A stretch of DNA of 54,140 nt from Mycoplana rhizolycopersici (GTDB taxonomy: Bacteria; Pseudomonadota; Alphaproteobacteria; Rhizobiales; Rhizobiaceae). The stretch covers positions 1 through 54,140 of the forward strand of contig NZ_JABXYK010000025.1 in the NCBI RefSeq assembly GCF_013378445.1. The letters are read 5' to 3'. The notes under the pieces are model-generated. The model had not been told where the DNA came from. It did not search any database and saw nothing but the letters and a program-made list of their open reading frames with translations. Made by a program: the position numbers and the translations under genes. Numbering within the stretch: position 1 is the first letter of the stretch; every line of letters starts with the position of its first letter. Shown piece after piece: positions 18,925-43,785 of the stretch.

Positions 18925-18945
18925 CTATTGATCTATATTCAATAG
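18925..18945. promoter_or_regulatory. Dyad CTATTGA-N7-TCAATAG before the shikimate-dehydrogenase-like gene
   Basis: Perfect 7-base arms with a 7-base spacer lie in the AT-rich promoter region, 3 bases before the first GAAT-N3-ATTC box. It may be a second operator or part of one composite site. Confidence 0.4.
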
Positions 18946-18947
18946 TG

Positions 18948-18958
18948 GAATGAAATTC
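18948..18958. promoter_or_regulatory. GAAT-N3-ATTC palindrome (box 1 of the island)
   Basis: GAATGAAATTC, preceded by TG, stands 23 bases before the start of the first shikimate-dehydrogenase-like gene. The same palindrome recurs at 20588-20616, 25755-25767 and 41640-41650, each upstream of a gene of the catabolic island. An IclR-family regulator encoded at 24946-25740 is the most likely binder (inference). Confidence 0.5.
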
Positions 18959-18980
18959 AAATTCGTTGGAGGAGACGGAT

Positions 18981-19766
18981 ATGGAACTCAACGGTGCATT
19001 GCGCCTGCATTTCGTGATTGGCGATCCGATCGCACAGGTGAAGTCGCCCGGCGGTGTCACCGAAATGCTGCAGGCCCGCGGTCTTAACGCCATCTGTATC
19101 CCGGGTCGCGTCGCGCCATCGGACCTTGAAACGTTCTGGTCCGGCGCCCGCACCCTTGAGAACCTCGACGGCGTCATCATCACCGTGCCGCATAAGATGG
19201 CGGCTATCGCCATGGCGGACCGGCTCTCCGAGCGCGCATCGTTTCTCGGCGCCGTGAACACGCTGCGCCGCACAGAAACCGGCTGGGAAGGCGATATGTT
19301 CGACGGCATCGGCCATGTCGCCGCCCTGCGGAAGGCAGGCTGCGTTCTGGAAGGCAAGCGGGCGCTGCTCGCTGGCGCCGGCGGCGCGGGAAGCGCGATC
19401 GCGCACGCGCTCGTGCTCGCGGGCATCTCCGAACTGGCCATCCACGAAATGGATGCCGCCCGGCGCGGCAGTCTGATCGAGCGGCTGTCCTCGCTCGGTC
19501 TCGCAAAGATCACCGCCGGCAGTGCCGATCCGAGCGGCTTCGATGTGGTGGTCAACGCCACCCCCGCCGGAATGAAGGAAGACGACCCGCTGCCCTTCGA
19601 TGCCGACAAGCTGACGTCCGACATGTTCATCGGTGAAGTGATTACCAAGCCAGCGATCTCCCCGCTCGTCGCCAGGGCGCGCGCGATCGGCTGCAACGCG
19701 ATTACCGGCACCGACATGTTCGTCGAAGTGCGCGATCTCATGGTCGATTATCTCTGCAGGACGTGA
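18981..19766 (+). CDS. Shikimate dehydrogenase-family protein (AroE-like paralogue 1)
   Basis: The 261-residue protein has the AroE fold: N-terminal substrate domain with FVIGDPIAQVKSP, the VIITVPHK strand whose Lys is catalytic, GAVNTLRR, an Asp in the DMFDGIG segment corresponding to the catalytic Asp, and the Rossmann motif LLAGAGGAGSAIAHAL (about residues 123-138). It deviates from housekeeping AroE at the substrate Ser pair and at NTDG, suggesting a catabolic paralogue. The likely reaction is NAD(P)-linked oxidation of shikimate, quinate or a related ring acid. GGAGGAGACGG precedes the ATG. It is followed after 10 bases by the TIM-barrel gene, and the two probably act in sequence. Confidence 0.82.
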   Translation: MELNGALRLHFVIGDPIAQVKSPGGVTEMLQARGLNAICIPGRVAPSDLETFWSGARTLENLDGVIITVPHKMAAIAMADRLSERASFLGAVNTLRRTETGWEGDMFDGIGHVAALRKAGCVLEGKRALLAGAGGAGSAIAHALVLAGISELAIHEMDAARRGSLIERLSSLGLAKITAGSADPSGFDVVVNATPAGMKEDDPLPFDADKLTSDMFIGEVITKPAISPLVARARAIGCNAITGTDMFVEVRDLMVDYLCRT

Positions 19767-19776
19767 GGAGCGCATC

Positions 19777-20589
19777 GTGAGCCGCAGTTTTGCTCTCGCC
19801 TTTCTTACCGTTCCCGACCTTGACCCGACCCAGGCGATCAGCGTCGCGGCCGAAACCGGCTATGACAGCGTCGGCCTTCGGCTCCTGCCGGCGGCGAACG
19901 GCGAGGGACCCTATCCGATCCTGACGGACGCCTCGGTGCTGGCCGAAGCGCGCGCCGCTCTGGCAGATACCGGCATTCGCGTCGGCGACGTGGAGATCGT
20001 CAGGTTGAAGCCTTACACGAAGGCCGAAGAATTCACAGGCTTTCTTGAATGTGCCGCCGCACTCGGTGCTGCAAACGTACTCGTTGCCGGAGACGATCCC
20101 GAACTGGCACGGTTGACGCAGACCTTTGGCGCCTTTGCGCAACTGGCCGCGCGCTACGGTCTGACCGCCGATCTCGAATTCATGCCCTGGACCGGCGTTC
20201 GCAACGCCGCAGAAGCCAAAGCGATCGTCGAGGGGGCCGGCCAGTCCAACGGCGGCGTGCTTGCAGACGCGCTGCATTGGGACCGTACCGGCGGCAAGGT
20301 CGAGGATCTGCAAAGCCTGCCTGCCAACCGAATCCACTACTTCCAACTCTGCGACGCGCCGGCCGAGTACGATCGCAGTGACGCGGGGCTGATCAGCATC
20401 GCGCGCGGGGGAAGGCTGCTGCCGGGCGAGGGCGGCATAGACCTTGCGGCCTTTGTGCGCGCCCTGCCTGCGGATGTACCGATCAGCATCGAGATCGCAT
20501 CTGCGGACCTCGTGAACCGGCTGTCGCCCCGCGACAGGGCCGCTCAGGCGCTCGCTGCCGCAAAGGCGACCATAGCGAACATTTTGTGA
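19777..20589 (+). CDS. TIM-barrel protein of the sugar isomerase/AP endonuclease 2 fold, possible 3-dehydroshikimate dehydratase
   Basis: The 270-residue product belongs to the xylose-isomerase-like TIM-barrel family. Metal-ligand positions can be seen: Glu in ADLEFMPW, Asp and His in VLADALHWDRTGG, Gln in IHYFQLCD and Glu in ISIEIAS. This E-D/H-Q-E set occurs in sugar phosphate isomerases and also in fungal/QsuB-type 3-dehydroshikimate dehydratases. Because it directly follows an AroE-like gene in an island that ends in protocatechuate metabolism, conversion of 3-dehydroshikimate to protocatechuate is an attractive but unproven role. The start is GTG with GTGAGGAG upstream. Its stop overlaps the first arm of the next operator. 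Confidence 0.7.
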   Translation: MSRSFALAFLTVPDLDPTQAISVAAETGYDSVGLRLLPAANGEGPYPILTDASVLAEARAALADTGIRVGDVEIVRLKPYTKAEEFTGFLECAAALGAANVLVAGDDPELARLTQTFGAFAQLAARYGLTADLEFMPWTGVRNAAEAKAIVEGAGQSNGGVLADALHWDRTGGKVEDLQSLPANRIHYFQLCDAPAEYDRSDAGLISIARGGRLLPGEGGIDLAAFVRALPADVPISIEIASADLVNRLSPRDRAAQALAAAKATIANIL

Positions 20590-20746: not shown

Positions 20747-22534
20747 ATGAACGCAGTCCCTAAGGCTGGATACACGGTTGAACCGATTGCAGAGAGCGAG
20801 AGCGTCAAATGCGACGTTCTCGTCGTCGGATCGGGTGCAGGCGGACTGTCCGCCGCCGTCGCCGCCGCCCATTTCGGGCTGAGCGTTATCGTCGCCGAGA
20901 AGGCCGAAACCTTCGGCGGCACGACGGCCTATTCCGGCGGCTGGCTCTGGGTGCCGAACGCCCCGCACGCGCTCGCCGCAGGGAAGGGCGAAGATCCGGA
21001 AGGGCCGAAAGCCTATCTGCGTCACGTTCTAGGAAACCGTTATGACGAAGCGATGATCGAAGGCTATCTGAGCGCCGCCCCGCGGATGCTGGACTTCTTC
21101 GAGCGCTATACGGACGTGCATTTTCTGCCGGGCAGTGGCGTGCCGGATTTTCACGGCAACGCCCCCGGCGCCGGAACAGGATGGCGATCCGTCGCCGCCG
21201 CCCCCTATGACGGCCGCAAGCTCGGCAACCTGATCCGGAGCCTGCGTCCGCCCATCCCGGAGACGACGTTTCTTGGAATGGGCATCGCATCCGGCATCGA
21301 CATGCGCATGTTTCTCACCGCCATGCGTTCGCCGGCCGCGTTTGCCTATGTCACGCGCCGCGTGCTGAGGCATGCCCGTGACCTGCTCCTCCATCGCCGC
21401 GCAATGCAGCTCGTCAATGGTAACGCACTCGTGGCGCGCCTGTTGCGTTCGGCAGCGGACAGGGGAGTGGCGCTCTGGCCGCGCTCGCCCGCGCGCGAAC
21501 TGATCCGAGACGGCAGCCGGATAACGGGAGCGATGATCGACACGCCATCAGGCTGCGTTGCCGTCACCGCGGGACGCGGCGTGGTGCTCGCCACGGGCGG
21601 GTTTCCCCATGATCCCGCTCGGCTTCATGATCTCCTGCCGCATGTCCGCGCCGGGACGCGGCATTGCTCTGCCGCGGCCGAGGCCAACACAGGCGACGGA
21701 TTACGGCTTGCGGAAAGCGCCGGCGGGCATGTGTCGGAACGGATGAGCCATGCCGCGGCCTATGCGCCGGTTTCGCTCGCCCCCCGGCGGGACGGCAGCG
21801 TCGGCCGCTTTCCGCACCTCGTCGAGCGTGGTAAGCCGGGTATCATCGCGGTGATGCCAACGGGCAGGCGTTTCGTCGACGAAGGCGGCCCCTACCACGA
21901 CTATGTCCGCGAAATGATCGCCGCCACGCCTGCCGGCGAGCCGGCGATTTCCTGGCTCATCTGCGACCATCGGTTCCTCCGCCGATACGGTCTGGGCGCC
22001 GTCAAGCCCGCGCCGGTCCCCTTCGGCCGCTGGCTGCGCAACGGCTACCTGATGAAGGGATCATCCATCGAGGCTTTGGCGAGGCTTTGCGGCATCGATC
22101 CGGCCGGCCTGTCGCGGACTGTCGCGGACTTCAACCGTCATGCGATGCAGGGAGAGGACCCGCAGTTTCATCGCGGCACGACGCCCTACCAGCGCGCCCA
22201 GGGAGATCCCGACCACCGGCCAAATCCCTGTATTGCGCCGATCGTGCGCGCACCGTTCTATGCGGTGCGGGTCGTTCCGGGAAGCCTCGGCACCTTCGCC
22301 GGCATCGAAACCGATGGCCTGGGCAGGGTTCTTGATGGGTCCGGTGTGCCGATCCCGGGGCTCTACGCGGCGGGCAATGATATGAACAGCATCATGGGTG
22401 GCAATTATCCGAGCGGAGGCATCACGCTCGGTCCTGCCATGACCTATGGATTCCTCGCCGCCGAAGCCATTGCCGGGCGCAACGCGGCGGAGACTGATAG
22501 CCACGGGAGGAATGAAAATGCCGTCGAACGCTGA
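20747..22534 (+). CDS. FAD-dependent ring desaturase, KstD/fumarate-reductase flavoprotein family (paralogue 1)
   Basis: The 595-residue flavoprotein has an N-terminal FAD-binding motif (VLVVGSGAGGLSAAVAAAH, about residues 26-44), EKAETFGGTTAYSGG, a second nucleotide strand GVVLATGGF, and the C-terminal FAD/active-site block GLYAAGNDMNSIMGGNYPSGG. The Tyr-Pro-x-x-Gly of that block corresponds to the catalytic Tyr/Gly of 3-ketosteroid delta-1-dehydrogenase. Enzymes of this group remove hydrogens next to a ring ketone. The context, with PobA and shikimate-type enzymes, favours a six-membered-ring oxo acid over a steroid. GGGAGGAGG precedes the ATG at 20747. It overlaps paralogue 2 by 17 bases. 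Confidence 0.82.
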   Translation: MNAVPKAGYTVEPIAESESVKCDVLVVGSGAGGLSAAVAAAHFGLSVIVAEKAETFGGTTAYSGGWLWVPNAPHALAAGKGEDPEGPKAYLRHVLGNRYDEAMIEGYLSAAPRMLDFFERYTDVHFLPGSGVPDFHGNAPGAGTGWRSVAAAPYDGRKLGNLIRSLRPPIPETTFLGMGIASGIDMRMFLTAMRSPAAFAYVTRRVLRHARDLLLHRRAMQLVNGNALVARLLRSAADRGVALWPRSPARELIRDGSRITGAMIDTPSGCVAVTAGRGVVLATGGFPHDPARLHDLLPHVRAGTRHCSAAAEANTGDGLRLAESAGGHVSERMSHAAAYAPVSLAPRRDGSVGRFPHLVERGKPGIIAVMPTGRRFVDEGGPYHDYVREMIAATPAGEPAISWLICDHRFLRRYGLGAVKPAPVPFGRWLRNGYLMKGSSIEALARLCGIDPAGLSRTVADFNRHAMQGEDPQFHRGTTPYQRAQGDPDHRPNPCIAPIVRAPFYAVRVVPGSLGTFAGIETDGLGRVLDGSGVPIPGLYAAGNDMNSIMGGNYPSGGITLGPAMTYGFLAAEAIAGRNAAETDSHGRNENAVER

Positions 22535-24275
22535 GCCGGAAACGATCGAGGAGGTCGACCTGCTGGTCTGCGGAGCAGGTGCAGGCGGCATGACGGCCGC
22601 GCTGGTAGCAGCTCTGGAAGGACTGAACGTCGTTCTCTGCGAAAAGACCGACCAGGTGGGGGGTACGACATCCACCTCCGGCGGCACGACGTGGGTGCCC
22701 GGAACGCATCTTTCCGAACTGGCGGGCGTACCCGACAAGGTGGAGGATGCGCGGGCGTTCCTGGAGTCCGTCGTTCCCAATCGCAGCGGAATTCGCCTTC
22801 GCGAGGCGTTTCTTGCCTCCGGCAGGCCGGCGATCGAGGAGCTCGACAGCCGGACGGACGTGAAGTTCGTCGCCGCAACCGCCCATCCGGACTATCTCGA
22901 CGGGCCGGGTTCCGCCTATGGCGGCAGGGCGCTGGCGCCGCTGATGTTCGACGGACGCCTGCTCGGGCGCGTCGACTTCGACCGGGTGCGCCCGCCACGC
23001 CCGGAATTCGTCGGCCTCGGCGGCATGATGGTCGGCCGAAACGAACTCGACGCGCTGCTTTCACCGCTGCGCTCGATCGGCAATTTTCGCAGTGCCATGA
23101 CGATCGTCGGCCGCTATCTCCTGGATCGCCTCGGCTATCGGCGGGGAACGCGGCTGCTGATGGGGAATGCTCTTGTGGCACGGCTGCTCCATAGCCTGCG
23201 CAAGGAAAAGGTACCCATCCTTTTCGAAACCGGCGTCAAGGAACTGATCGTCGAAGACGGCCGCGTCGTCGGCGCGGTCATGGAAGGTCCGTCCGGCACC
23301 CGCCGCATCCGCGCGCGCAAGGGTGTCGTCCTGGCGACCGGCGGCGTCTGCTGGAACCGGCAGATCCGTGAACGGCTCTTCCCGGAGGGCACGCGGGACT
23401 ATGCGCTCGGCCCGGTGAGCAACACCGGCGACGGGGCGGACATTGCAACCGCCATCGGCGCCGGCTTCGAGGATGGCGGCGATAGCCCGGCACTATGGAT
23501 GCCGTGCTCGTCCTACCGGCGCCCGGACGGTACGCTGGCGGTCTGGCCGCATATCATTCTCGATCGTGCCAAACCTGGCCTTCTGGCCGTTGACGCATCA
23601 GGCAAGCGCTTCGTCAACGAATCCGATTCCTATCATGACTTCGCGATGGGGCAGATCAGAAGCGGCGCCATCCCTGCGCATCTTATCTGCGACACCGCCT
23701 TCATCCGCCGCTACGGTATGGGGATGATCCTGCCGGGAGCGCGCAATCTCGGCGCGATGATCAAGGCCGGCTACGTCATCGAGGCGAAGACCCTGGCTGA
23801 GCTCGCGGCGAAAATCGGCTGCGACGCACCGTCGCTTGCAGCCACGGTCGAGGCTTATAACCGTTCGGCCGCGACGGGCACAGACGAGGCGTTCGGGCGC
23901 GGGCGTTCCGTCGTGAACCGCTTCAACGGCGATCCCGCCATAGGTCCGAACCCCTGTATGGGACCGATCGCCGCCGGGCCGTACTATGCCATGGCCGTCC
24001 GACCGTCCGATCTCGCCTCGAGCGCCGGCCTGTCCGGTGACGAATTCGGCCGGGTCCTGGACAAGGAAGGCGAGCCTATCGCCGGTCTCTATGCCTGCGG
24101 CAACGATCTCGCCTCGATCTTTCGAGGCACCTATCCCGGACCGGGCACCACCATCGGCCCGGCGATCGTCTTCGGCTGGCGTGTTGCCAAGCATGCGGCC
24201 GGCAAGCTCAAGGACATGCCGACGAACAACACCGGCGCAAGGACAGATGAAAGGAAGAACCGTGCAACGCTATGA
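22518..24275 (+). CDS. FAD-dependent ring desaturase, KstD-like family (paralogue 2)
   Basis: The 585-residue protein shares the layout of its neighbour. It has LLVCGAGAGGMTAALVAALE at residues 15-34, EKTDQVGGTTSTSGGTTWVPG, GVVLATGGVCWN and the C-terminal GLYACGNDLASIFRGTYPGPG with the catalytic-type Tyr-Pro-x-x-Gly. It is clearly diverged from paralogue 1, so the two may perform successive desaturations or act on different ring positions. Translation is coupled by a 17-base overlap. Of two nearby ATGs, 22518 is preferred because GGGAGG stands 7 bases away. A NIPSNAP gene follows with overlap. Confidence 0.82.
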   Translation: MPSNAEPETIEEVDLLVCGAGAGGMTAALVAALEGLNVVLCEKTDQVGGTTSTSGGTTWVPGTHLSELAGVPDKVEDARAFLESVVPNRSGIRLREAFLASGRPAIEELDSRTDVKFVAATAHPDYLDGPGSAYGGRALAPLMFDGRLLGRVDFDRVRPPRPEFVGLGGMMVGRNELDALLSPLRSIGNFRSAMTIVGRYLLDRLGYRRGTRLLMGNALVARLLHSLRKEKVPILFETGVKELIVEDGRVVGAVMEGPSGTRRIRARKGVVLATGGVCWNRQIRERLFPEGTRDYALGPVSNTGDGADIATAIGAGFEDGGDSPALWMPCSSYRRPDGTLAVWPHIILDRAKPGLLAVDASGKRFVNESDSYHDFAMGQIRSGAIPAHLICDTAFIRRYGMGMILPGARNLGAMIKAGYVIEAKTLAELAAKIGCDAPSLAATVEAYNRSAATGTDEAFGRGRSVVNRFNGDPAIGPNPCMGPIAAGPYYAMAVRPSDLASSAGLSGDEFGRVLDKEGEPIAGLYACGNDLASIFRGTYPGPGTTIGPAIVFGWRVAKHAAGKLKDMPTNNTGARTDERKNRATL

Positions 24276-24873
24276 AATTGCGACACTTTCGACCAGCATG
24301 GGGGCGGCCGCCAAAGCTGCGCCCGCGATCGAGGCCTTCGCAAGCGAAGGAAAGGGGTGCCTTCTCGGTATCTTTTACGCCGACATCGGCGCACTGAACC
24401 GCGTTCTGGTTTTCCGCGGGTTCGAGACCGCGGCGGATTACGATGCGGAGCGCGAGCGCACGTTGCGGGCCGCAAACCCGTTCGGCTCGGCCGAATGGCT
24501 GACCGGGCTGGAGCTTGAGGGCTATGCCCCGTTTCCCTTCCTGCCACCAGTCGAGACCGGCAGCTTCGGGCCGGCTTACGAATTTCGCACCTATGTGCTG
24601 AAGTCCGGCGGACTGGAACCGACCATCCGCGCCTGGGAGGCCGCCGTCCCGGCGCGCACCGAACTCTCGAAGCTGGCGATCTGCATGTACGGCATCGACG
24701 GCAAGCCGCGCATGACCCACATCTGGCCCTTTGCCTCCGTCAACGAGCGCGGCCAGATCCGTGCGGATTCCGTCGCCCAGGGCGTCTGGCCGCCAAAGGG
24801 CGGGCCAGACTGGCTGACGACGGACATGCGCTCGACCATTGCCTTCCCGACGGCGAACTCCCCGTTGAAATAG
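24262..24873 (+). CDS. NIPSNAP family protein (first of two)
   Basis: The 203-residue product consists of two ferredoxin-like (dimeric alpha-beta barrel) NIPSNAP units; the second begins at AYEFRTYVLKSGGLEPTIRAWEAAVPAR near residue 96. The biochemical role of bacterial NIPSNAP proteins is not settled; many are encoded beside oxygenases or dehydrogenases. It overlaps the end of flavoprotein paralogue 2 by 14 bases and so belongs to the same transcript. GTG at 24262 was chosen because AAGGAAG stands 5 bases before it; an ATG at 24247 is possible. No signal peptide is seen. Confidence 0.75.
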   Translation: MQRYEIATLSTSMGAAAKAAPAIEAFASEGKGCLLGIFYADIGALNRVLVFRGFETAADYDAERERTLRAANPFGSAEWLTGLELEGYAPFPFLPPVETGSFGPAYEFRTYVLKSGGLEPTIRAWEAAVPARTELSKLAICMYGIDGKPRMTHIWPFASVNERGQIRADSVAQGVWPPKGGPDWLTTDMRSTIAFPTANSPLK

Positions 24874-24945: not shown

Positions 24946-25740
24946 TCAACCGTGCTTGTGCAGTCCGGGGAAATACTTGGAACCGTTGGCCGCAAGGCCG
25001 ATCTCTTCGGCAGCGGCAGAAAGATGGGGCGCAAGCTCGGCCATCCGCTCAGGCGTCATGCGAACGGCGGGCGCTGCGATCGACAGGCAACTGATAACCT
25101 GTCCGCCGCTTCGCACCGGCATTGCCATAGCAGCCATGCCAATGATGTAGCTGTCGACCGAGCGCGCATAGCCTCGCTTGCGCGTCTCGGCGAGAATGTC
25201 CAGAAGTTCCGCGATCGTACGGGGCGCGCCCGGTCCCGATGGCTTGCCGGGATTGATCAGCCCCTGGCGCGAAACCCGCTCCAGCGCCTCCTCGTCGCTC
25301 ATCGAGGCAAGCCACGCCTGCCCACCGGCGCTGCTTGCGAGATGGACCACGACGCCTTGTTCCTGGCCCGGATCGTATCGCAAGCCGCCCGTAGCCCCCT
25401 GCGCCACGGCGACCCAGATCAGATCGTCGCCATCGATCACCGAAAGGCGAATCAACTCGCCGCTCGTCTGTGCCAGCCGGTCGAGAATCGGTTGCGCCAC
25501 GTCGCCGACGCCGGTTCGCCCGAGGAAGCCGACGCCGAGCGCGGCCAGCTTCATCGTCAGCGCATAGTCTCCCTGCTCCTGAACCTGACGCACATAACCC
25601 AGTCGAATCAATTCGTTGAGAGTACGGTGAACGCCACTCGCCGGCTGGTTCACGCGCTGCGCGATGTTGGAAACGGACAACCCCGCCGGCCGCTCGGCCA
25701 GGAATTCGATGATGCTCAGGGACTTCTCAAGGATACTCAT
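24946..25740 (-). CDS. IclR-family transcriptional regulator (candidate regulator of the island)
   Basis: The 264-residue protein has an N-terminal winged helix-turn-helix (SLSIIEFLAERPAGLSVSNIAQRVNQPASGVHRTL, residues 6-40) and the C-terminal IclR effector domain with RLSVIDGDDLIWVAVAQG and SYIIGMAAMAMPV. IclR members often control aromatic and hydroaromatic catabolism. The gene converges on the flavoprotein operon. The ATG at 25740 was chosen over 25764 and 25845 because the upstream starts lie in or beyond a GAAT-N3-ATTC-like site, which is better read as an operator for autoregulation. Confidence 0.88.
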   Translation of the reverse strand: MSILEKSLSIIEFLAERPAGLSVSNIAQRVNQPASGVHRTLNELIRLGYVRQVQEQGDYALTMKLAALGVGFLGRTGVGDVAQPILDRLAQTSGELIRLSVIDGDDLIWVAVAQGATGGLRYDPGQEQGVVVHLASSAGGQAWLASMSDEEALERVSRQGLINPGKPSGPGAPRTIAELLDILAETRKRGYARSVDSYIIGMAAMAMPVRSGGQVISCLSIAAPAVRMTPERMAELAPHLSAAAEEIGLAANGSKYFPGLHKHG

Positions 25741-25754
25741 GGGCGTTCCAATCT

Positions 25755-27099: not shown

Positions 27100-27109
27100 G
27101 GGATTTTCC

Positions 27110-29488: not shown

Positions 29489-31239
<1,751 letters not shown>

Positions 31240-36376: not shown

Positions 36377-36377
36377 G

Positions 36378-37145
36378 TCAGCCTCCGAGATATGCGTCGA
36401 TGACCATCTGGTTCGACCGGATTTCATCCGGCGTCCCCTCGGCGATGATCTCGCCCTGTGCCAGAACGATGATACGGGTGCAAAGCGACATCACGAACTC
36501 CATGTTGTGTTCGATGACGACGAAGGTCGTCCCGTGCTCGCGATTGTAGGTGACCAGCCGCTCCTTCAGGTGCCCGAGCATGGTCAGGTTCACCCCACCG
36601 GCCGGCTCGTCGAGCAGAACGATTCCTGGACCTGCCATGAAGGCCATCGCGGCATCCACGAGCTTCTGCTGGCCGTAGGAGAGGGAGCCGGCTGGCGTGT
36701 CGCGGTAAGGCGTCAGGCGGAAGAATTCGATCAGCTGCTCCGCCTTCCCGGTCAGGCCTGCGTCCGGCTTGCCCAGCAGGCGCGACAGCATCGAGCCCTG
36801 ATGCTCCTGGCCGGCGAGGATAACGTTGTCCAGCACGCTCATCTTCGGGAAGACTGAAAGCTGCTGGAAGGTCCGGCCAACCCCCATCAGGGAAAGGTCC
36901 GCCGGGCGCACGCCGTCGGTCGAGCGGCCGTTGATCTCGCAATGCCCCTCGGTCGGCTTGAGCTGGCCAAGGATGCAGTTGAAGAGCGTGGATTTACCGG
37001 AGCCGTTCGGTCCGATCAGGCCCAGGATCTCGCCCTTCCGGACATCGAAGCTGACCCCGTTGACGGCCCGGATGCCGCCGAACTGCTTCGAAATGTTGTG
37101 CACCGAGAGGATGGGTGCATTCGTGTTGTCGGCACGCATGTTCAT
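36378..37145 (-). CDS. Branched-chain-type ABC transporter ATPase, LivG family
   Basis: The 255-residue ATPase carries Walker A GPNGSGKST, GVGRTFQQLSVFPKMSV, signature LSYGQQKLVDAAMA (a variant with Tyr in the second position), Walker B IVLLDEPAGGVN and VVIEHNMEFVM. Its length and C-terminal extension fit LivG. The start overlaps the permease stop (ATGA) with AAGGGG upstream. A longer reading through the permease region in another frame is an artefact. It energises uptake together with the LivF-type partner. Confidence 0.9.
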   Translation of the reverse strand: MNMRADNTNAPILSVHNISKQFGGIRAVNGVSFDVRKGEILGLIGPNGSGKSTLFNCILGQLKPTEGHCEINGRSTDGVRPADLSLMGVGRTFQQLSVFPKMSVLDNVILAGQEHQGSMLSRLLGKPDAGLTGKAEQLIEFFRLTPYRDTPAGSLSYGQQKLVDAAMAFMAGPGIVLLDEPAGGVNLTMLGHLKERLVTYNREHGTTFVVIEHNMEFVMSLCTRIIVLAQGEIIAEGTPDEIRSNQMVIDAYLGG

Positions 37146-38116
37146 AGCTGGACCCCTTGCTTCAGATCGCGGCGGGCTTCTTGCCGGGGCTTGATCTTTT
37201 CGGCGAGCTTCTGGCCGAGGCCGATCAGGCCGTTCGGCGAATAGACCATCAGCACGATCACAAGCGCCGAGTAGATGATCAGGTAGTAGCCTTCGGTGAA
37301 ACGCAGCATCTCGGGCAGCAGAATGACGACGGCAGCGCCGAGCATCGGGCCGAAGAAGAAGCCCGAGCCACCCACGACCACCATCAGCAGGAGCTTGAGC
37401 GAATGGATGAGGGCAAAGCTGCTGGGCTCGATGAACTGCACGAGCGGGGTCTGCAGCGCACCGGCAAGGCCACCGAAGGCAGAGCCGATGGCAAAGGCGA
37501 GCAGCGTCTGGCGACGGATCTTGAGGCCAAGGCTCTCTGCGCGGATCGGGTTCTCGCGCAGCGCCTTGAAGGCGCGGCCCCACGGTGAGCGCAGGATCCA
37601 CCACATGGCCGCTGCAGCCAGCAGGAAGCAGACCAGCGAGAAATAGTAGAAGGCCAGGTTGCTGTCCGTGCTGATGCCGAAGAAGGTGGGGCGTTCCATG
37701 CCGACCAGACCGAACGAACCTCCGGTGATCTCCTCTTCGTTGCGCAGGACCAGGAAGAGCAGTGTGTTGAAGGCGAGCGTCACGAAGGCCAGGAAGTGAT
37801 GCTGAACGCGCAGCGCCGGATAGCCGAGCAGAAGACCGACGGCGAAGCTCGACAAGATCGAGATCAGCGCCGCGACGCTCCAGTGGATGCCGTTCAACGT
37901 CATCAGCGCGGTGATGTAGGCACCGATGCCCATGAAGCCGGCCTGGGCGAGACTGACCTGTCCGGCATAGCCGAGCGTCAGGTTCAGGCCCATGGCCGCG
38001 ATCGAGAACAGTAGCCACGAGCAGAGCGTGTAGATGATGTAGTTGCCCTGGCCGATCGGCGCGACGAGCAGTGCCGCGATGCCGAGTGCGATGAGAATGG
38101 GCTGATAGCGGGTCAT
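37142..38116 (-). CDS. Branched-chain-type ABC transporter permease, LivM family
   Basis: The 324-residue inner-membrane protein has about eight to ten hydrophobic segments. It includes GLNLTLGYAGQVSLAQAGFMGIGAY near residue 43, a LivM hallmark, and GRAFKALRENPIRAESLGL, the coupling loop for the ATPase. It overlaps both neighbours by ATGA and pairs with the LivH-type permease to form the channel. Substrate assignment rests on the island context. Confidence 0.92.
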   Translation of the reverse strand: MTRYQPILIALGIAALLVAPIGQGNYIIYTLCSWLLFSIAAMGLNLTLGYAGQVSLAQAGFMGIGAYITALMTLNGIHWSVAALISILSSFAVGLLLGYPALRVQHHFLAFVTLAFNTLLFLVLRNEEEITGGSFGLVGMERPTFFGISTDSNLAFYYFSLVCFLLAAAAMWWILRSPWGRAFKALRENPIRAESLGLKIRRQTLLAFAIGSAFGGLAGALQTPLVQFIEPSSFALIHSLKLLLMVVVGGSGFFFGPMLGAAVVILLPEMLRFTEGYYLIIYSALVIVLMVYSPNGLIGLGQKLAEKIKPRQEARRDLKQGVQL

Positions 38117-38991
38117 ACGGTTCTCCCTTCCGGGGTGCCGAGCAGCCCCTGCGGGCGCAGCAGGATGATGGCGATAAGCAGCAGGAGCGGCATGGCGGCG
38201 CGATACTGGGCGGAGATGTAGACAGCCGAGAGGTTGTCGATCACGCCGATCAGCAGGCCGCCGACAAGCGCGCCGCGGATCTGGTTGAAGCCGCCGACGA
38301 TGGCGGCGATGAAGGCGACGAGGCCCAGCGTCTCACCGTTCGAGAACTTGGCGAGATAGATCGGCGAGATCAGGACCGACGCGATCGTGGCAAGGGCGGC
38401 GTTGATGAGAAACGTGTAGAGCACCATGCGCTTGACGTTGACGCCGAGAATTTCGGCCACGGCAGGGTTCTGGGCGCTGGCTTGCATGCAGCGGCCCGTC
38501 CGGGTGCGGTTCAAGAACAGCTGCAGGCCGCCGATCGCCAGCATCGAGACGACAAGGTTGCAGATGTCCTGCACCGAAACGCTGGCGCCGGCGACATTGT
38601 AGACGGTTTGCGGGAAGATCGCAGGGAAGGGTTGGGCGGTGGCCCCGTAGAACTCCTTCACGCTCTCCTTCAGAAGCAGGCCGAGTGCGATGGTGGCGAT
38701 GACGAGCGGCAGAGTGCCGTGCGGCAGCATAGGCTCGACGATGAGCCGCTTGAACGCCACGCCGAGGATCAGCAGCGACAGAACCAGTGCCAGCAGGATG
38801 GACGTCCACATCGGCAGGCCGAGGACGGTCATGCCAATAAGCACGAAGAAGGCCGGGAGCATGACGAACTCGCCCTGGGCGAAGTTGATCGTTTGCGACG
38901 CCTGCCAAAGCAGCGTGAAGCCTACGGCGGCGAGCGCATAGATGGAACCGGCGGCGAGGCCGGAAACGAGAATCTGGATAAGCTCGGCCAT
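38113..38991 (-). CDS. Branched-chain-type ABC transporter permease, LivH family
   Basis: The 292-residue permease starts with LIQILVSGLAAGSIYALAAVGFTLLWQASQTINFAQGEF, the LivH hallmark, and contains GRCMQASAQNPAVAEILGVNV as the ATPase-contact loop. ATG at 38991 is preferred over 39006 because AAGGAC precedes it. It lies 98 bases downstream of the binding-protein gene and overlaps the LivM-type gene by ATGA. Confidence 0.92.
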   Translation of the reverse strand: MAELIQILVSGLAAGSIYALAAVGFTLLWQASQTINFAQGEFVMLPAFFVLIGMTVLGLPMWTSILLALVLSLLILGVAFKRLIVEPMLPHGTLPLVIATIALGLLLKESVKEFYGATAQPFPAIFPQTVYNVAGASVSVQDICNLVVSMLAIGGLQLFLNRTRTGRCMQASAQNPAVAEILGVNVKRMVLYTFLINAALATIASVLISPIYLAKFSNGETLGLVAFIAAIVGGFNQIRGALVGGLLIGVIDNLSAVYISAQYRAAMPLLLLIAIILLRPQGLLGTPEGRTV

Positions 38992-39089
38992 GGTTTCGTC
39001 CTTCAAGGGCTGTTGGTCGGCTCTGCGAATAATGATGAGTAGCGGCCGGCGGCGTCATCCGCCGCCGGCATTGAGGGTGCCGATCAGGC

Positions 39090-40217
39090 TTAGTTCGGCG
39101 GCAGGATTGCTTGCACGACCTGCTTGCCGTTTTCGACCTTCACGAAGAAGCTCTCGCGGGACATTTCGCCCGTCTCGTCCCAGCTGACGTCCATCAGGAC
39201 GCCCGGGTACTCGGAAGCCTTGAGCGTCAGGCCGTGCAGCTTTTCGGCGATCGCCTTGCTGTCCGGGCTACCGACCATCTCGGTGACGTATTTCAACGTC
39301 CAGGCAGCGGTATAGCCTTTGATGGCGTTGTGGTCGGGGGTGTAGTTGTACTTCGTCTTGAAGCGCTCGACCATTTCGGTGAGGGCAGGGATGTTGGCAT
39401 CCGGCGTGAGCCCGACATGGCCCATGGCACCGTTGGCGGCATCACCGGCCAGTTCGATCACCTTGTGCCCGATCAGCGTGGTTTCGCCGATCAGCGGCTT
39501 ATCTATACCCTGCTTGCGCGCCTCGCGCAGGAAGCGGGCGCTTTCCTCTTCGGTGAAATAGACGAAGATGGCGTCGGCGTCTGAATTCTTCAGCTTCAGA
39601 ACGTCAGCGGAAAAGTCGGCCTGCGCCTGCTCGGCCGGCACGTCGATCACGATCGGAATGCCCGCCTTCTCCATCTCCGCGACGAATGCCTGATGACCGC
39701 CCTTGCCGAATTCGGTGTTCGCCCAGGCGACGCCCACCTTCTTCACCCCCATGTTATCGACCATGTACTTGACCATCTTCGGCACGCCCTTCTGCGAGCC
39801 GAACGCGGTCCGGAAGATGTACGGATTGCCCTTGGCGGTGATCGAAGGCGCCTCGGAGCCGGTGAACTGTGGAATGCCGTACTGCTTGGCAACCAGCATG
39901 TTCACCACCGTGGACGACGAGAAGACCGTGCCCGTGATCGCATAGACGCCATCGTCGATGGCCTTCTGCACCATGGCGCGGGAAACCTGCGGATCGGTCT
40001 GGCTGTCGTATTCGAGGACGGACACCTGCTCCTTCAGGATGCCACCCTGGGCATTGATCTCCTCGAAGCCCATCTTCACGCCGTCGCGGAAGTTCGTGCC
40101 AGCCGCAGCACCCGCGCCGGACAGTTCGATGATGGAGCCGATCTTGAGTTCTGCGAGTGCCGGTGCGACGCCAAGCGCCATCACCAGGGCCGCTGTCGAA
40201 AGAAGTCTTCTGATCAT
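39090..40217 (-). CDS. Branched-chain-type ABC transporter substrate-binding protein, possible aromatic acid binder
   Basis: The 375-residue periplasmic protein has a Sec signal peptide (MIRRLLSTAALVMALGVAPALA) and a type I LivJ/K-like fold with KIGSIIELSGAGAAAGTNFRDGVKMGFEEINAQGG, VYAITGTVFSSSTV and the hinge strand ADAIFVYFTEEE. HAAT-type binding proteins in soil bacteria bind amino acids, aromatic acids or amides. Placement beside pob/pca genes favours an aromatic or hydroaromatic carboxylate. GGGAGGA stands 5 bases before the ATG. A dyad 198 bases upstream resembles LysR-type sites. Confidence 0.87.
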   Translation of the reverse strand: MIRRLLSTAALVMALGVAPALAELKIGSIIELSGAGAAAGTNFRDGVKMGFEEINAQGGILKEQVSVLEYDSQTDPQVSRAMVQKAIDDGVYAITGTVFSSSTVVNMLVAKQYGIPQFTGSEAPSITAKGNPYIFRTAFGSQKGVPKMVKYMVDNMGVKKVGVAWANTEFGKGGHQAFVAEMEKAGIPIVIDVPAEQAQADFSADVLKLKNSDADAIFVYFTEEESARFLREARKQGIDKPLIGETTLIGHKVIELAGDAANGAMGHVGLTPDANIPALTEMVERFKTKYNYTPDHNAIKGYTAAWTLKYVTEMVGSPDSKAIAEKLHGLTLKASEYPGVLMDVSWDETGEMSRESFFVKVENGKQVVQAILPPN

Positions 40218-40577
40218 TGCGTTCCTCCCTATAATGATCATTGCTGACGATCCGAGCGACAGGCCAACGGACTGCTTCTCGGAACGCGGCGACCTTGATC
40301 TCCTCCCGGCGCCGCGATTTCTTTTAGTCGATACTCCCCATCCTCCCAGATGGACAACTTGTGTCACCATATCCGCTCGGACGGCGTGTTGACGAATACC
40401 GATTGGGCTCTTTGCATAACATCATGTTAAGCGCCCACTGTCGTTGGGACCTATCCACACATTGGCTTCAAAGTTTCCAGACCTGCGGAAACCCCGGCCT
40501 GAAGATCATTCGCCCGGCTCCACCTTTGATCCTAGAAGAAATCACGCCGCCTGCATCCGGAAAATGGACGATGGTCG
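40218..40577. promoter_or_regulatory. Upstream region of the Liv-type transporter operon
   Basis: This 360-base stretch separates the binding-protein gene from the downstream end of the epimerase gene. It should hold the promoter of the transporter operon. ATGATCATTGC-like repeats flank the ribosome site (40211-40252). The dyad at 40415-40430 is listed separately. No gene or RNA element was recognised in the rest. Confidence 0.5.
40415..40430. promoter_or_regulatory. CATAAC-N5-GTTAAG dyad (site A)
   Basis: CATAACATCATGTTAA contains the perfect palindrome TAACAT-C-ATGTTA. It has the T-N11-A form of LysR-type sites and resembles, with one spacer base fewer, the ATAACC-N4-GGTTAA motif described for PcaQ. 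An almost identical dyad lies at 43769-43785. Confidence 0.45.
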
Positions 40578-41477
40578 CTAAACATTGGACGATTCCTTGC
40601 CGGCAACGTGCCGCAGTTCAGCGAGCGACCTTTCAATTCCGGCAGCTATGCCAGTCACGGGCTGGGAAGCCAGAAATTCGGGAACAGGATCGGAGGCAAG
40701 ATCGGCGGGAATGCGCAGCGGATCGCCGCTGATGGCAACATCCGACCATCCGGTCTGGCGATGAAGCTCGGAGACGAATTCTGTCATCTCGGCTGTTTCC
40801 CCGGCCATGGTCACGACGGTTGCGCCGGTCAGCGGCGCCGACATTGCCGCAGCCATCATACGCGCGACGTCGTCCACATGGACGAAGCCGACGCGGCCGG
40901 AGAAGCGGATTTCAGCCGGCTCCTTGCGCGCTGCGGCCGCGATGGCGATCGACGGACCGGCCGCGATTCCTGCGCTGATGCCGGGCCCATAGACGATGTA
41001 CGGCCGCAAGCCGAAGCTGGTCACGCCATGATCGATGTTGAAGGCCCGCGCAGCACCCTCGACCGCGAGCTTGGTCGCGCCGTAAATGGTCATGGGCTTC
41101 GGGTGGATCGGATCCTCCGGCCCGAAGACGCCGGCGGTGCTCAGATAAGCGACGGGAAGGCGACCTGCCTTTGCCGCTTCGAATACGTTGAGGCTGCCGA
41201 TCAGGTTGACGCGCGCGCCGAGCAGCGGGTCTTTGGCGCAATCGGCGGTCATGAGGCCGGCGAGGTGAACGATTCCGGTACAACCGCTTGCCGCGGCGAG
41301 AACGGCCGCCGTGTCCGTAATGTCGCCGGTAACGACCTCGATCTCGGCGTGGGGCGGAAGGCGATCGGGCCTCGGCGCCAGATCGAACACACGGATACCG
41401 TGACCGGCACGGTGCAACGCTGCAATCGTGCGCAAGCCGACGAAACCTGTGCCGCCGGTGACGAGTATCCGGCTCAT
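40578..41477 (-). CDS. NAD-dependent epimerase/dehydratase (extended SDR)
   Basis: The 299-residue protein has the N-terminal Rossmann motif ILVTGGTGFVG, a VVTGDITD acidic strand end, YLSTAGVFG and the catalytic Tyr-x-x-x-Lys in MTIYGATKLAVEG, all of extended SDRs (nucleotide-sugar epimerases and related enzymes). It is 22 bases shorter at the N-terminus than the longest frame; AGGGAC upstream supports the ATG at 41477. It is divergent from the Gfo/Idh/MocA gene and may be coregulated from the shared 240-base region. The substrate is unknown; an oxidised polyol or ring acid is possible. Confidence 0.83.
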   Translation of the reverse strand: MSRILVTGGTGFVGLRTIAALHRAGHGIRVFDLAPRPDRLPPHAEIEVVTGDITDTAAVLAAASGCTGIVHLAGLMTADCAKDPLLGARVNLIGSLNVFEAAKAGRLPVAYLSTAGVFGPEDPIHPKPMTIYGATKLAVEGAARAFNIDHGVTSFGLRPYIVYGPGISAGIAAGPSIAIAAAARKEPAEIRFSGRVGFVHVDDVARMMAAAMSAPLTGATVVTMAGETAEMTEFVSELHRQTGWSDVAISGDPLRIPADLASDPVPEFLASQPVTGIAAGIERSLAELRHVAGKESSNV

Positions 41478-41639
41478 GCCGGCAAGTCCCTGTGCATCAC
41501 TCCGGCCCACACGCAGGCGCAAGCCGGACTACGCGCGGCATGAGGTGCACATACCTTTGTCGCCCATACGGCTCCCATCCAGCATTCCTCCCAAAATGGC
41601 ACCGGCATCGGCCAGCGGGGGTCAATATTGCAAAAAATA

Positions 41640-41650
41640 GAATGTCATTC
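41640..41650. promoter_or_regulatory. GAAT-N3-ATTC palindrome (box 4)
   Basis: GAATGTCATTC is a perfect copy of the island palindrome. It lies 68 bases before the Gfo/Idh/MocA start, in the divergent region shared with the epimerase gene. An additional ATTCCATTA half-site lies 15 bases downstream. Confidence 0.5.
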
Positions 41651-41717
41651 AATAATAAACTTCAATTCCATTATTATGGCTGCGCTGGTAGCCTCAAGGC
41701 AGATCAGGGAGGATATC

Positions 41718-42785
41718 ATGACAGGATCAATCGGCGTTGCAGTAATCGGTGCCGGTGCCATCGGACGCACACATATCGACACGCTGACCCGGATGGAGGG
41801 CCTGCACCTTGCAGCGATCATAGACCCGGCACCTTCCGGCGCAGCCCTTGCCCAATCGCTGGGCGTGCCCTGCCTCCCGGACACAGCCACCTTGATCGAG
41901 TCGGGAATTGCCGATGCGGCCATCGTCGCCACGCCGAACGAGACCCATTTGCCAATCTCCGAAGCCCTGTTGCAAGCGGGAATTCCCGTACTGCTGGAAA
42001 AGCCGGTGGCCGAGAGCCTCGCCTCCGCCCTTCGGTTGATCGAAATCGCCGAGGAGACTGGCAGGCCGCTCCTGGTCGGCCATCATCGCCGCCACAATCC
42101 GATTATCCGCAAGGCGCACGAAACCATCCATGCCGGCCGGATCGGCAATCTCGTAATGGCCACTGTCACCTGCTCGCTCGCCAAGCCGCCCTCCTATTTC
42201 GAGGCGGCCTGGCGCCGCACGCCTGGGGCAGGGGGGCCGCTGCTGATCAACCTCGTCCACGAAATCGATCTGCTTCGGCATTTCTTCGGACAAGTGGCCA
42301 CTGTACAGGCGATTGCCAGCAACGGCCGACGCGGCTTTGCCGTCGAGGACACCGCCGCTGTCGCGCTGACCTTTGCGGACGGCGGCCTGGCGACACTATG
42401 CATCTCGGATGCGGCAACAGGACCGTGGGCCTGGGATCTGACTGCGGGCGAGAATCCCGTCCGCTTCCCGGCACATCCGGTGACCGCCCACCACTACGCG
42501 GGGAGCCGGGCCGGACTGTCCCTCCCGGACCTGACGCTCTGGGAGCCGGAGGGCGAGCCGGACTGGACGCGCCGCTTGCAGCCGACAAAGCTCGCAGTGG
42601 AGGCGGCCGATCCTTACGAGGAGCAACTCCGGCACTTCGGCAACCTGATCAGGGAAGGCGGCACGCCACTGGTCTCCGCGCGCGACGCGACGGCCAATCT
42701 GATCGTACTGGATGCCATTCGCGCGGCAGCCGAAAGCGGACGTGCCGTGGCTGTCGACCTTTCGCCGCTCGACGTCAGGGGCTGA
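41718..42785 (+). CDS. Gfo/Idh/MocA-family NAD(P)-dependent oxidoreductase
   Basis: The 355-residue protein has the N-terminal nucleotide-binding GVAVIGAGAIGRTHIDTL, ADAAIVATPNETH and the family signature LLEKPVAESL (the EKP motif, Lys being catalytic). A C-terminal alpha/beta domain contains GGPLLINLVHEIDLLRHFFG with a conserved His. Such enzymes oxidise or reduce sugars, inositols and cyclic polyols. AGGGAGGA stands 5 bases before the ATG at 41718. A GAAT-N3-ATTC box lies in its promoter. It converges with the second shikimate/quinate dehydrogenase-like gene. Confidence 0.88.
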   Translation: MTGSIGVAVIGAGAIGRTHIDTLTRMEGLHLAAIIDPAPSGAALAQSLGVPCLPDTATLIESGIADAAIVATPNETHLPISEALLQAGIPVLLEKPVAESLASALRLIEIAEETGRPLLVGHHRRHNPIIRKAHETIHAGRIGNLVMATVTCSLAKPPSYFEAAWRRTPGAGGPLLINLVHEIDLLRHFFGQVATVQAIASNGRRGFAVEDTAAVALTFADGGLATLCISDAATGPWAWDLTAGENPVRFPAHPVTAHHYAGSRAGLSLPDLTLWEPEGEPDWTRRLQPTKLAVEAADPYEEQLRHFGNLIREGGTPLVSARDATANLIVLDAIRAAAESGRAVAVDLSPLDVRG

Positions 42786-42826
42786 GCACCTGCGCGGGGT
42801 GGTGGCAAGTCAGACTGAAACACGTT

Positions 42827-43657
42827 TCAATCAGCCATCGCCTCGCGCAGGCGTACCTCGTCGACCGGCAGACCGGTGAAGATGCGCCAGGCATCGACGC
42901 CCTGACCGATAAAGAGCTCGTAGCCGGATATGACCTGCAGACCCTCCGCGTCCGCATCCTGCAGGAACCGCGTCTCAGGAGGCGTGTAGACCGCGTCGAA
43001 AGCCCATTGAGCGCCGGCCATGGCGGCGCGCGCAAGCGGCGTGCCCTCATGGCCGACCATGCCGACCGGCGTACAATTCACCAGTCCGGCCACGCCCCTG
43101 GCAAGGACGGCAGCATCCGCGCCCGTTTCCGTCAGCAGATCGGGACGAGCGGCCTTCAGCGCCTGAGCGAGTGATTCCGCTCGCGACACGTCACGATCAA
43201 CGATGTGAAATGCGCGAAGGCCGAGCGCGACAAGTGCAAACGCAATCGCCTTGCCGACCCCTCCCGCACCGATCATCAACACCGTACCGGGCAGGGCGTC
43301 GCCGCGAATTCGTCGATAGGCAGCGACAAAGCCTGAGTAGTCGGTATTGAAGCCGTGCGGCCCACCCTCATCGAACAGCACCGTGTTGACGGCGCCGATG
43401 GCAGCGACGAGCGGATCATCGATTTTGACCCGGGCGGCAGCGTTTTCCTTGTAAGGGTAGGTGATGTTCACGCCGCGGTAACCGGCAGCGGACACATCGT
43501 CAAACAACGCCTCGAACGTCATGCCGTGTTCGGCGGGCATCAGCCGGTCGTAGACGACGCGGCGTCCGTTCTGCGCGGCGGCCAGCATATGCAGGCGTGG
43601 AGAAAGCGACTTTGCGATATTGTCGCCCACCAGACCGAGGCGGATGGTTTCAGTCAT
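42827..43657 (-). CDS. Shikimate/quinate dehydrogenase-family protein (AroE-like paralogue 2)
   Basis: The 276-residue protein has the complete catalytic set of the family: SLSPRLHM (substrate Ser motif) near residue 15, YPYKE with catalytic Lys near residue 71, the GAVNTVLF strand, GFNTDYSGF with catalytic Asp, and the Rossmann motif MIGAGGVGKAIAF. The closing block ISGYELFIGQGVDAW is also typical. It likely interconverts quinate/dehydroquinate or shikimate/dehydroshikimate. It has better conserved residues than paralogue 1. The ATG at 43657 fits the first strand; GGGGAGGAAAGGG lies upstream. A dyad shared with the transporter promoter lies 112 bases before the start. Confidence 0.88.
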   Translation of the reverse strand: MTETIRLGLVGDNIAKSLSPRLHMLAAAQNGRRVVYDRLMPAEHGMTFEALFDDVSAAGYRGVNITYPYKENAAARVKIDDPLVAAIGAVNTVLFDEGGPHGFNTDYSGFVAAYRRIRGDALPGTVLMIGAGGVGKAIAFALVALGLRAFHIVDRDVSRAESLAQALKAARPDLLTETGADAAVLARGVAGLVNCTPVGMVGHEGTPLARAAMAGAQWAFDAVYTPPETRFLQDADAEGLQVISGYELFIGQGVDAWRIFTGLPVDEVRLREAMAD

Positions 43658-43768
43658 GGGCTGCCCTTTCCTCCCCTTGCGCGTAGGGTCAGGGCTTTGC
43701 CCGACCGCAGGGTCAAAAGCAGCATTTCCGAAATGACGCTTAACGGCAAATACCCAGTTTGCAGCAAT

Positions 43769-43785
43769 CATAACATGAAGTTATG
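43769..43785. promoter_or_regulatory. CATAAC-N5-GTTATG dyad (site B)
   Basis: The arms CATAAC (43769-43774) and GTTATG (43780-43785) are perfectly complementary. The element matches site A at 40415-40430 in arm sequence and spacing, so one regulator probably controls both the transporter and this dehydrogenase. Confidence 0.5.

What the first reader, a model, noticed from the sequence alone, without database searches (positions are those of the whole stretch)
18925..43785. Candidate hydroaromatic-ring aromatisation island feeding 4-hydroxybenzoate and protocatechuate
Three KstD-like flavoproteins (20747-22534, 22518-24275, 32351-34060), two SDRs, two AroE-like dehydrogenases, a dehydroshikimate-dehydratase-like barrel protein and two NIPSNAPs surround pobA, pcaIJF and an aromatic-type importer. 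All three flavoproteins keep the C-terminal Tyr-Pro-x-x-Gly of ketosteroid dehydrogenases, but no other steroid gene is present. Known precedent: 4-oxocyclohexanecarboxylate desaturases in aromatising cyclohexanecarboxylate degradation lead to 4-hydroxybenzoate. Inference: saturated or partly unsaturated hydroxy ring acids are oxidised and desaturated here to 4-hydroxybenzoate or protocatechuate. The combination of a shikimate-type branch and a desaturase branch in one island appears unusual.
Basis: partly seen in the sequence, partly recalled or inferred. Interest (0 to 1): 0.85.

Follow-up and report, generated by a model that had tools for sequence, protein, structure and literature searches.

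The report
Ring-acid aromatisation gene island
This stretch carries a conserved set of genes that most likely turns saturated, hydroxylated six-membered ring acids into ordinary aromatic acids that the bacterium can then digest; the exact starting compound is not known.

Summary
It missed an AraC regulator, a Gfo/Idh/MocA dehydrogenase, an extended SDR and an IclR regulator.

The core is conserved. Of the 80 best FAD1 loci in other genomes, 52 carry all five of FAD2, aroE1, barrel, nips1 and iclR1 nearby, and 63 carry at least four, in shuffled order in Alpha-, Beta- and Gammaproteobacteria. In Bartonella, one Acinetobacter and Beijerinckia the set lies beside pcaHG. The KstD Tyr318, Tyr487 and Gly491 equivalents are invariant. 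Best reading (0.6): a desaturating route from hydroxylated ring acids to protocatechuate, plus a FAD3-SDR-pobA branch to 4-hydroxybenzoate.

A QuiC-like gene and a shikimate-type AroE/AroQ cluster lie elsewhere in the genome, so the barrel need not be the dehydroshikimate dehydratase. The substrate is unproven; di- and trihydroxycyclohexanecarboxylates are my guess.

The parts
18981..19766 (+). aroE1, AroE-like dehydrogenase; first gene of the core operon
   Evidence: Shikimate_dh_N 1.9e-18; below AroE equivalog cut-offs; best solved relative 4k28; found in 70 of 80 loci
19777..20589 (+). TIM barrel of the xylose-isomerase-like type, QuiC-like metal site E134, D164, Q190, E239 with H167
   Evidence: AP_endonuc_2; conservation; model pLDDT 96.8; Foldseek; 74 of 80 loci
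20747..22534 (+). FAD1, KstD-like flavoprotein of subfamily PRK06134
   Evidence: 829.5 bits against cut-off 747; Tyr383, Tyr554, Gly558 invariant in 83 of 83 rows
22518..24275 (+). FAD2, KstD-like flavoprotein, overlaps FAD1 by 17 bases
   Evidence: 697.5 bits to PRK12843, below its cut-off 758; Tyr126, Tyr372, Tyr539, Gly543 in 61 of 61 rows
24262..24873 (+). NIPSNAP1, two-domain protein, overlaps the end of FAD2 if the GTG at 24262 is used
   Evidence: Pfam NIPSNAP 6.2e-23; start; model pLDDT 94.6; 69 of 80 loci
24946..25845 (-). IclR-type regulator of the core set
   Evidence: 68 of 80 loci
25894..27153 (-). pcaF, 3-oxoadipyl-CoA thiolase
   Evidence: TIGR02430 675.2 against cut-off 597
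27110..27799 (-). pcaJ
   Evidence: TIGR02428 311.7 against cut-off 243.55
27796..28503 (-). pcaI
   Evidence: TIGR02429 367.6 against cut-off 128.5
28607..29419 (+). PcaR/PobR-type IclR regulator (start uncertain; ORF opens at 28439)
   Evidence: TIGR02431 320.7 against cut-off 284.75
29489..30679 (-). pobA, 4-hydroxybenzoate 3-monooxygenase, overlaps NIPSNAP2 by 4 bases
   Evidence: TIGR02360 650.5 against cut-off 538.7
30676..31257 (-). NIPSNAP2, upstream of pobA in the same direction
   Evidence: Pfam NIPSNAP 2.6e-20
31334..32233 (-).
   Evidence: HTH_18 5.6e-19; 12 of 80 loci
32351..34060 (+). FAD3, KstD-like flavoprotein with the full Tyr set
   Evidence: 716.5 bits to PRK06134, below cut-off 747; residues; own clade
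33994..34836 (+). SDR1 (start uncertain)
   Evidence: adh_short_C2 1.9e-63
34745..35572 (+). SDR2 (start uncertain); ChcB2 model is its third-best hit, below cut-off
   Evidence: 206.4 bits against cut-off 350
35654..40370 (-). LIV-type ABC importer: two ATPases, two permeases, binding protein
40578..41522 (-). extended SDR / epimerase-like
   Evidence: Epimerase 7.6e-32; 14 of 80 loci
41628..42785 (+). Gfo/Idh/MocA-type dehydrogenase (start uncertain)
   Evidence: 5.3e-26; 39 of 80 loci
42827..43771 (-). aroE2, quinate/shikimate-dehydrogenase-like
   Evidence: PRK12549 232.1, just under cut-off 235; best solved relatives 2nlo and 3jyo

Best explanation
The island is a peripheral catabolic route that turns hydroxylated, partly or fully saturated cyclohexane carboxylates into aromatic acids. 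Module A (aroE1, barrel, FAD1, FAD2, NIPSNAP1, Gfo dehydrogenase, IclR) oxidises a ring hydroxyl to a ketone (AroE1 or Gfo), removes hydrogens next to that ketone with the KstD-like flavoproteins, and where an extra hydroxyl is present loses water on the metal site of the barrel, giving protocatechuate. Module B (FAD3, SDR1/SDR2, AraC, NIPSNAP2, pobA) does the same for a 4-hydroxy/4-oxo ring and gives 4-hydroxybenzoate, which PobA hydroxylates to protocatechuate. Ring cleavage genes lie on another contig (pcaBGHCD); pcaIJF in the window finish the job. Shown: the genes, their conservation, the KstD residues, the link to pca/pob genes. Inferred: every reaction of FAD1-3, AroE1, barrel and NIPSNAPs, the order of steps and the substrates. 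My guess at substrates is 3,4-di- and 3,4,5-trihydroxycyclohexanecarboxylate (dihydroshikimate).
For: Core genes recur together: all five partners of FAD1 in 52 of 80 loci, at least four in 63 (tim 74, aroE1 70, nips1 69, iclR1 68, FAD2 62, gfo 39). Bartonella L051 reads pcaD-pcaC-pcaH-pcaG-aroE1-tim-gfo-FAD1-FAD2-nips1-transporter-pcaB-pobA (pcaC, G, B and a metabolite/H+ symporter by NCBIfam; pcaH, pobA). Beijerinckia L063 has pcaB, G, H, type I aroD and a QuiC-like gene beside it. 25 of 33 chosen module genomes have pcaH over the cut-off against 33 of 190 sampled genomes of the class; 7 of the other 8 have a LigA match; 31 of 33 have pobA. Tyr318, Tyr487 and Gly491 equivalents: 83 of 83, 61 of 61, and 7 of 8 rows with one gap. 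FAD1, FAD2 and FAD3 of such loci form separate clades.
Against: No substrate, product or induction data. ChcC1, ChcC2 and KstD cut-offs missed. FAD1 has Phe (72 of 83 rows) where KstD has Tyr119. Only 18 of 80 loci have any pca, pob, qui or aroD gene within reach, and some of those matches are weak. One module genome (Acinetobacter guerrae, L050) has neither pcaH nor LigA. The genome has a QuiC-like gene and a shikimate-type AroE with AroQ elsewhere. The many partners (Gfo, epimerase, extra barrels) are more than a simple route needs.
Confidence: 0.6

Rival explanations
1. The core is a variant of ordinary quinate/shikimate catabolism: AroE1/AroE2 oxidise quinate or shikimate, the barrel is the dehydroshikimate dehydratase, and the flavoproteins play a side role.
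For: AroE2 is close to the Corynebacterium quinate/shikimate dehydrogenase; the barrel shares the QuiC-type metal residues and its model matches the QuiC structure 5hmq at E 1.8e-15.
Against: No dehydroquinate dehydratase in the window; AroQ-type genes, a shikimate-type AroE and a QuiC-like gene lie elsewhere in the genome. In 5 of the 6 loci with a strong QuiC-like match the barrel is present too (L059, L063, L099, L110, L119; not L111), so the two are not redundant. Two conserved flavoproteins have no role in that pathway.
Confidence: 0.15
2. The flavoproteins and partners degrade other ring compounds (cyclitols, cyclohexenone natural products such as mycosporine-type compounds, or steroid-like ketones), and the nearness to pca genes is incidental.
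For: Gfo/Idh/MocA, epimerase and xylose-isomerase-like barrels are typical of sugar and cyclitol pathways (recalled); 62 of 80 loci show no pca/pob/qui gene within reach; the barrel's nearest solved structures include putative sugar isomerases.
Against: AroE-type protein in 70 of 80 loci and insertion inside pca runs in Bartonella and an Acinetobacter; no steroid gene in the window.
Confidence: 0.15
3. A true ChcA-C pathway for cyclohexanecarboxylate itself, with FAD3 and SDR2 as ChcC and ChcB.
For: FAD3, SDRs and pobA together; ChcB2 model is third-best for SDR2. An aromatising cyclohexanecarboxylate pathway through 4-hydroxybenzoate is on record (passages of PMC5906575).
Against: 550 bits against a cut-off of 900 for ChcC2, about 300 against 1000 for ChcC1, 206 against 350 for ChcB2; ten other flavoproteins score 260-591 on ChcC2. 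No ring hydroxylase (P450) was seen among the window proteins scanned.
Confidence: 0.1

Closest known systems
ChcB/ChcC enzymes of aromatising cyclohexanecarboxylate degradation
   Same: KstD-like flavoproteins plus SDR beside pobA; proposed outlet 4-hydroxybenzoate
   Different: all scores far below the NCBIfam equivalog cut-offs; a third flavoprotein, AroE, barrel, Gfo and NIPSNAPs are added
3-ketosteroid delta-1-dehydrogenase (KstD; 4c3x, 7p18)
   Same: fold and residues equivalent to Tyr318, Tyr487, Gly491; Tyr119 in FAD2 and FAD3
   Different: Phe in place of Tyr119 in FAD1; no steroid genes; below KstD model cut-offs
QuiC-type 3-dehydroshikimate dehydratase (5hmq)
   Same: barrel fold, metal residues E, D, Q, E and the D-x-x-H motif
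   Different: no dioxygenase-like second domain, about 21% identity, low model score
Quinate/shikimate pathway (qui, qsu)
   Same: feeds protocatechuate; one Acinetobacter locus (L053) has a type I AroD-like gene and a porin beside the core
   Different: uses desaturation by flavoproteins; classical genes lie elsewhere in this genome

Membership tests
KstD | catalytic Tyr318, Tyr487, Gly491 (numbering recalled, mapped on 4c3x by the printed alignment) | tested here: met
   FAD1 83/83, FAD2 61/61, FAD3 7/8 with one gap
KstD | Tyr119 equivalent | tested here: inconclusive
   Tyr in FAD2 61/61 and FAD3 8/8; Phe in 72/83 FAD1 rows
KstD | score over a curated KstD model | tested here: not met
   at most 450 bits against cut-offs 788-793
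ChcC1 / ChcC2 | score over NF053676 / NF053677 | tested here: not met
   best 550 against 900 and 317 against 1000
ChcC1 / ChcC2 | activity on 4-oxocyclohexanecarboxylate | not testable with these tools
   needs an assay
PRK06134 FAD-dependent oxidoreductase subfamily | score over cut-off 747 | tested here: met
   FAD1 829.5; FAD3 716.5 and FAD2 586.1 do not reach it
QuiC dehydroshikimate dehydratase | score over NF042435 (two-domain fusion) | tested here: not met
   36.6 bits against 1200; other full-length QuiC-like proteins also miss it (755 and 630)
QuiC dehydroshikimate dehydratase | metal residues | tested here: met
   E134, D164, Q190, E239 conserved; shared with other barrels in part
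Shikimate dehydrogenase AroE | score over an equivalog model | tested here: not met
   AroE1 142 against 200.2; AroE2 155.5 against 200.2 and 232.1 against 235 for a subfamily
PobA, PcaF, PcaIJ, PcaR | score over curated cut-offs | tested here: met

The most novel reading that the evidence does not exclude
A widespread, undescribed aerobic route for hydroaromatic acids without the 1-hydroxyl of quinate (for example the dihydroshikimate that lactic acid bacteria make from quinate): oxidation, desaturation by dedicated KstD-like enzymes and dehydration to protocatechuate, with a parallel branch to 4-hydroxybenzoate. Each desaturase system has its own NIPSNAP partner, which would be a dienone-phenol tautomerase or similar and so a first catabolic role for these proteins.
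Probability: 0.3. Interest if true: 0.75.

Novelty: new variant of a known kind. Interest (0 to 1): 0.55.

Why it matters
A gene set kept together over three classes of proteobacteria, in soil, freshwater, plant and bee-gut genera, and joined in places to protocatechuate genes, points to a common natural ring acid whose breakdown has not been assigned to genes. It would give functions to several KstD-like, AroE-like, QuiC-like and NIPSNAP families that are now named only by resemblance, and it is testable with a few growth and enzyme assays.

Tried and rejected
Filing FAD3 as ChcC2 was rejected after ten other flavoproteins scored 260-591 on the same model. Filing the barrel as the only dehydroshikimate dehydratase was rejected because of the QuiC-like gene elsewhere. 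Literature searches for a described pathway gave nothing on this gene set: (open-licence PMC papers only; the ChcC papers themselves were not found there). Of papers I saw passages only: PMC9600256, PMC5726620, PMC9324987, PMC5906575, PMC10558750; all others as search listings. Two bee-gut papers name quinate as a used or changing metabolite but say nothing, in the passages seen, on this gene set. The structure search of NIPSNAP1 gave ABM-type monooxygenase-like folds (3f44, 5f9p, 9kdp) and single NIPSNAP domains, which does not settle its reaction.

The 11 control loci (L033-L043) come from 20 non-module genomes and were picked after I had seen that their 1.5-kb flanks lacked aroE1, tim and nips1, so the zeros there are partly by choice. 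The Fisher values ignore relatedness and are only descriptive. The 33 genomes were chosen by me from the 80 for spread over genera; the class sample holds many small genomes. Labels in loci rest on best tblastn or blastp hits.
Full report
Anatomy. The window lies on contig C25 of a 5.6-Mb genome. The island runs from aroE1 (18981) to aroE2 (43771) and is flanked on the left by minCDE and on the right by DUF2950/DUF3300 genes. Gaps and overlaps suggest these units: aroE1-tim-FAD1-FAD2-nips1 (+); iclR1 (-); pcaI-pcaJ-pcaF (-); PcaR-type regulator (+); nips2-pobA (-); AraC (-); FAD3-SDR1-SDR2 (+); a five-gene LIV-type ABC importer (-); an extended SDR (-); Gfo/Idh/MocA (+); aroE2 (-). PobA, PcaF, PcaI, PcaJ and PcaR pass curated cut-offs.

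Flavoproteins. Their best solved relatives are KstD-type enzymes 7p18 and 4c3x. The residues that align with KstD Tyr318, Tyr487 and Gly491 (numbering recalled; mapped on the printed 4c3x alignment with an offset of 20 that I inferred from chain length) are invariant in 83 of 83 FAD1 rows and 61 of 61 FAD2 rows, and present in 7 of 8 FAD3 rows with one gap (rows include the window). The Tyr119 equivalent is Tyr in FAD2 (61/61) and FAD3 (8/8) but Phe in 72 of 83 FAD1 rows. So the catalytic set for removing hydrogens next to a ketone is there. Yet none passes the KstD or ChcC cut-offs. The ChcC2 scores of 508, 390 and 550 say little: six PRK06134-type relatives outside such islands score 520-591, two FAD2-like ones 411 and 451, and a distant one 260; that is nine of the ten proteins, the tenth scoring 545, inside the first range.

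Conservation. Their titles name 33 genera by my count, in Alpha-, Beta- and Gammaproteobacteria. Within about 10 kb, tim is found in 74 of 80, aroE1 in 70, nips1 in 69, iclR1 in 68, FAD2 in 62 and gfo in 39; all five partners of FAD1 in 52 and at least four in 63. Order and strand vary, so this is selection for a set, not mere recent descent. In 11 chosen loci of other FAD relatives tim, aroE1, nips1, iclR1 and gfo are absent (0 of 11), while FAD2-type and SDR1-type matches occur (2 and 7 of 11); these loci were picked after a look at their near flanks, so this is a weak control. A FastTree tree of 165 flavoproteins puts window FAD1 in a clade of 74 that holds no control protein (support 0.935), FAD2 in a clade of 62 with one control (0.978) and FAD3 in a clade of 7 (1.0). 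Within the genus 2 of 7 genomes, the window's own included, have FAD2 at E <= 1e-100, so the island is patchy.

Link to protocatechuate. In Bartonella choladocola (L051) the core lies inside a pca run that ends with pobA; in one Acinetobacter (L058) it lies between pcaD-pcaC-pcaH-pcaG plus a porin and a PcaR-type gene with pobA; in Beijerinckia mobilis (L063) it has pcaB, pcaG, pcaH, a type I aroD and a QuiC-like gene beside it. Names were checked: PcaH in these three by TIGR02422, PobA of L051 and L058 by TIGR02360, PcaG of L051 and L058, PcaB and PcaC of L051 and AroD of L063 by NCBIfam. In all, 18 of 80 loci have some pca, pob, QuiC-like or aroD match; 5 of 80 match pcaH or pcaG, one of them weakly (L084, 31%); three of the nine QuiC-like matches are weak. 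On the genome level, 25 of 33 chosen module genomes have pcaH over the cut-off, against 33 of 190 sampled genomes of the class; 7 of the remaining 8 have LigA, the small part of extradiol enzymes such as protocatechuate 4,5-dioxygenase; Acinetobacter guerrae has neither. 31 of 33 have pobA.

Second module. FAD3 orthologues occur in 7 of 80 loci, often with SDR1 and an AraC gene. In the five of these seven whose flank after FAD3 is held (L045, L048, L062, L081, L119), and in L030 and L028, a NIPSNAP lies near; L059 and L087 end inside FAD3. NIPSNAP domains occur in 71 of 80 loci and in 0 of 11 control loci. So both desaturase systems come with a NIPSNAP. The model of NIPSNAP1 (pLDDT 94.6) resembles ABM-type monooxygenase-like proteins and single NIPSNAP domains; a tautomerase or cofactor-free oxidase role is inference.

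Barrel and AroE. The barrel keeps E134, D164, H167, Q190 and E239. Its model (pLDDT 96.8) is closest to Lmo2234 (2g0w), then IolI, then the barrel/HPPD fusion 5hmq at E 1.8e-15. PMC9324987 (passages) says that three acidic metal residues are shared by dehydroshikimate dehydratases; the barrel has them. AroE1 keeps K77 and D113 and has a conserved V25 where I recall a carboxylate-binding serine in AroE; the related structure 4k28 has the same residue. So both are shikimate-type in kind but probably changed in substrate.

Rest of the genome. On C4 a full-length QuiC-like gene (630 bits, below its cut-off of 1200; so is the Halomonas one at 755) lies next to pcaB, pcaG, pcaH, pcaC and pcaD. On C15 a shikimate-dehydrogenase-subfamily AroE (450.7 against 235) lies near an AroQ and an internally deleted QuiC-like gene; transport genes between them look TRAP-type by eye. 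Classical quinate/shikimate use therefore need not involve the island, which argues that the conserved flavoprotein set serves something else.

Mechanism and substrate. The set fits hydroaromatic acids that lack the 1-hydroxyl used by dehydroquinate dehydratase. For 3,4,5-trihydroxycyclohexanecarboxylate, oxidation at C3, desaturation at C1-C2 and loss of water give protocatechuate; for the 3,4-diol, oxidation and two desaturations do; for a 4-hydroxy acid, oxidation and two desaturations give 4-hydroxybenzoate. This is inference from known chemistry. That lactic acid bacteria reduce quinate to dihydroshikimate is the title of a 1957 paper that I saw only in the reference list of PMC10558750. 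That cyclohexanecarboxylate can be aromatised to 4-hydroxybenzoate is stated in passages of PMC5906575.

Verdict. Observation confirmed, interpretation partly supported, new variant of a known kind.

Noticed in passing
window 31334-32233 (-) and ORF 31238-34060 (+): An AraC regulator lies opposite a 940-codon open frame that is FAD3 plus a shadow extension; the shadow part matched no Pfam family.
   Followed up: yes
own genome C15:7793-8968 (L145): A QuiC-like gene with an internal deletion: only model positions 2-42 and 590-627 match.
   Followed up: partly
own genome C4 about 315.5-322 kb (L131:3567-10202): A second set of barrel (37%), SDR, epimerase and Gfo genes without flavoproteins in the stretch read.
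   Followed up: no
L050 (Acinetobacter guerrae): Has the core set and pobA but neither pcaH nor LigA matched in its genome.
   Followed up: no
L096 (Microvirga plasmid pMVF16-1): FAD1-type gene and barrel next to pcaH, pcaG, pcaI and pcaJ matches on a 1.4-Mb plasmid.
   Followed up: no
window 416-13965: Left flank: cheW, cheR, cheB, a sugar ABC importer, FGGY kinase, ROK and DeoR regulators and an ADP-dependent phosphofructokinase-like gene, 12697-13965.
   Followed up: no
window 43905-52700: Right flank: DUF2950, DUF3300, ankyrin repeats, cyclase-TPR protein, PHO4 and DUF47 genes.
   Followed up: no
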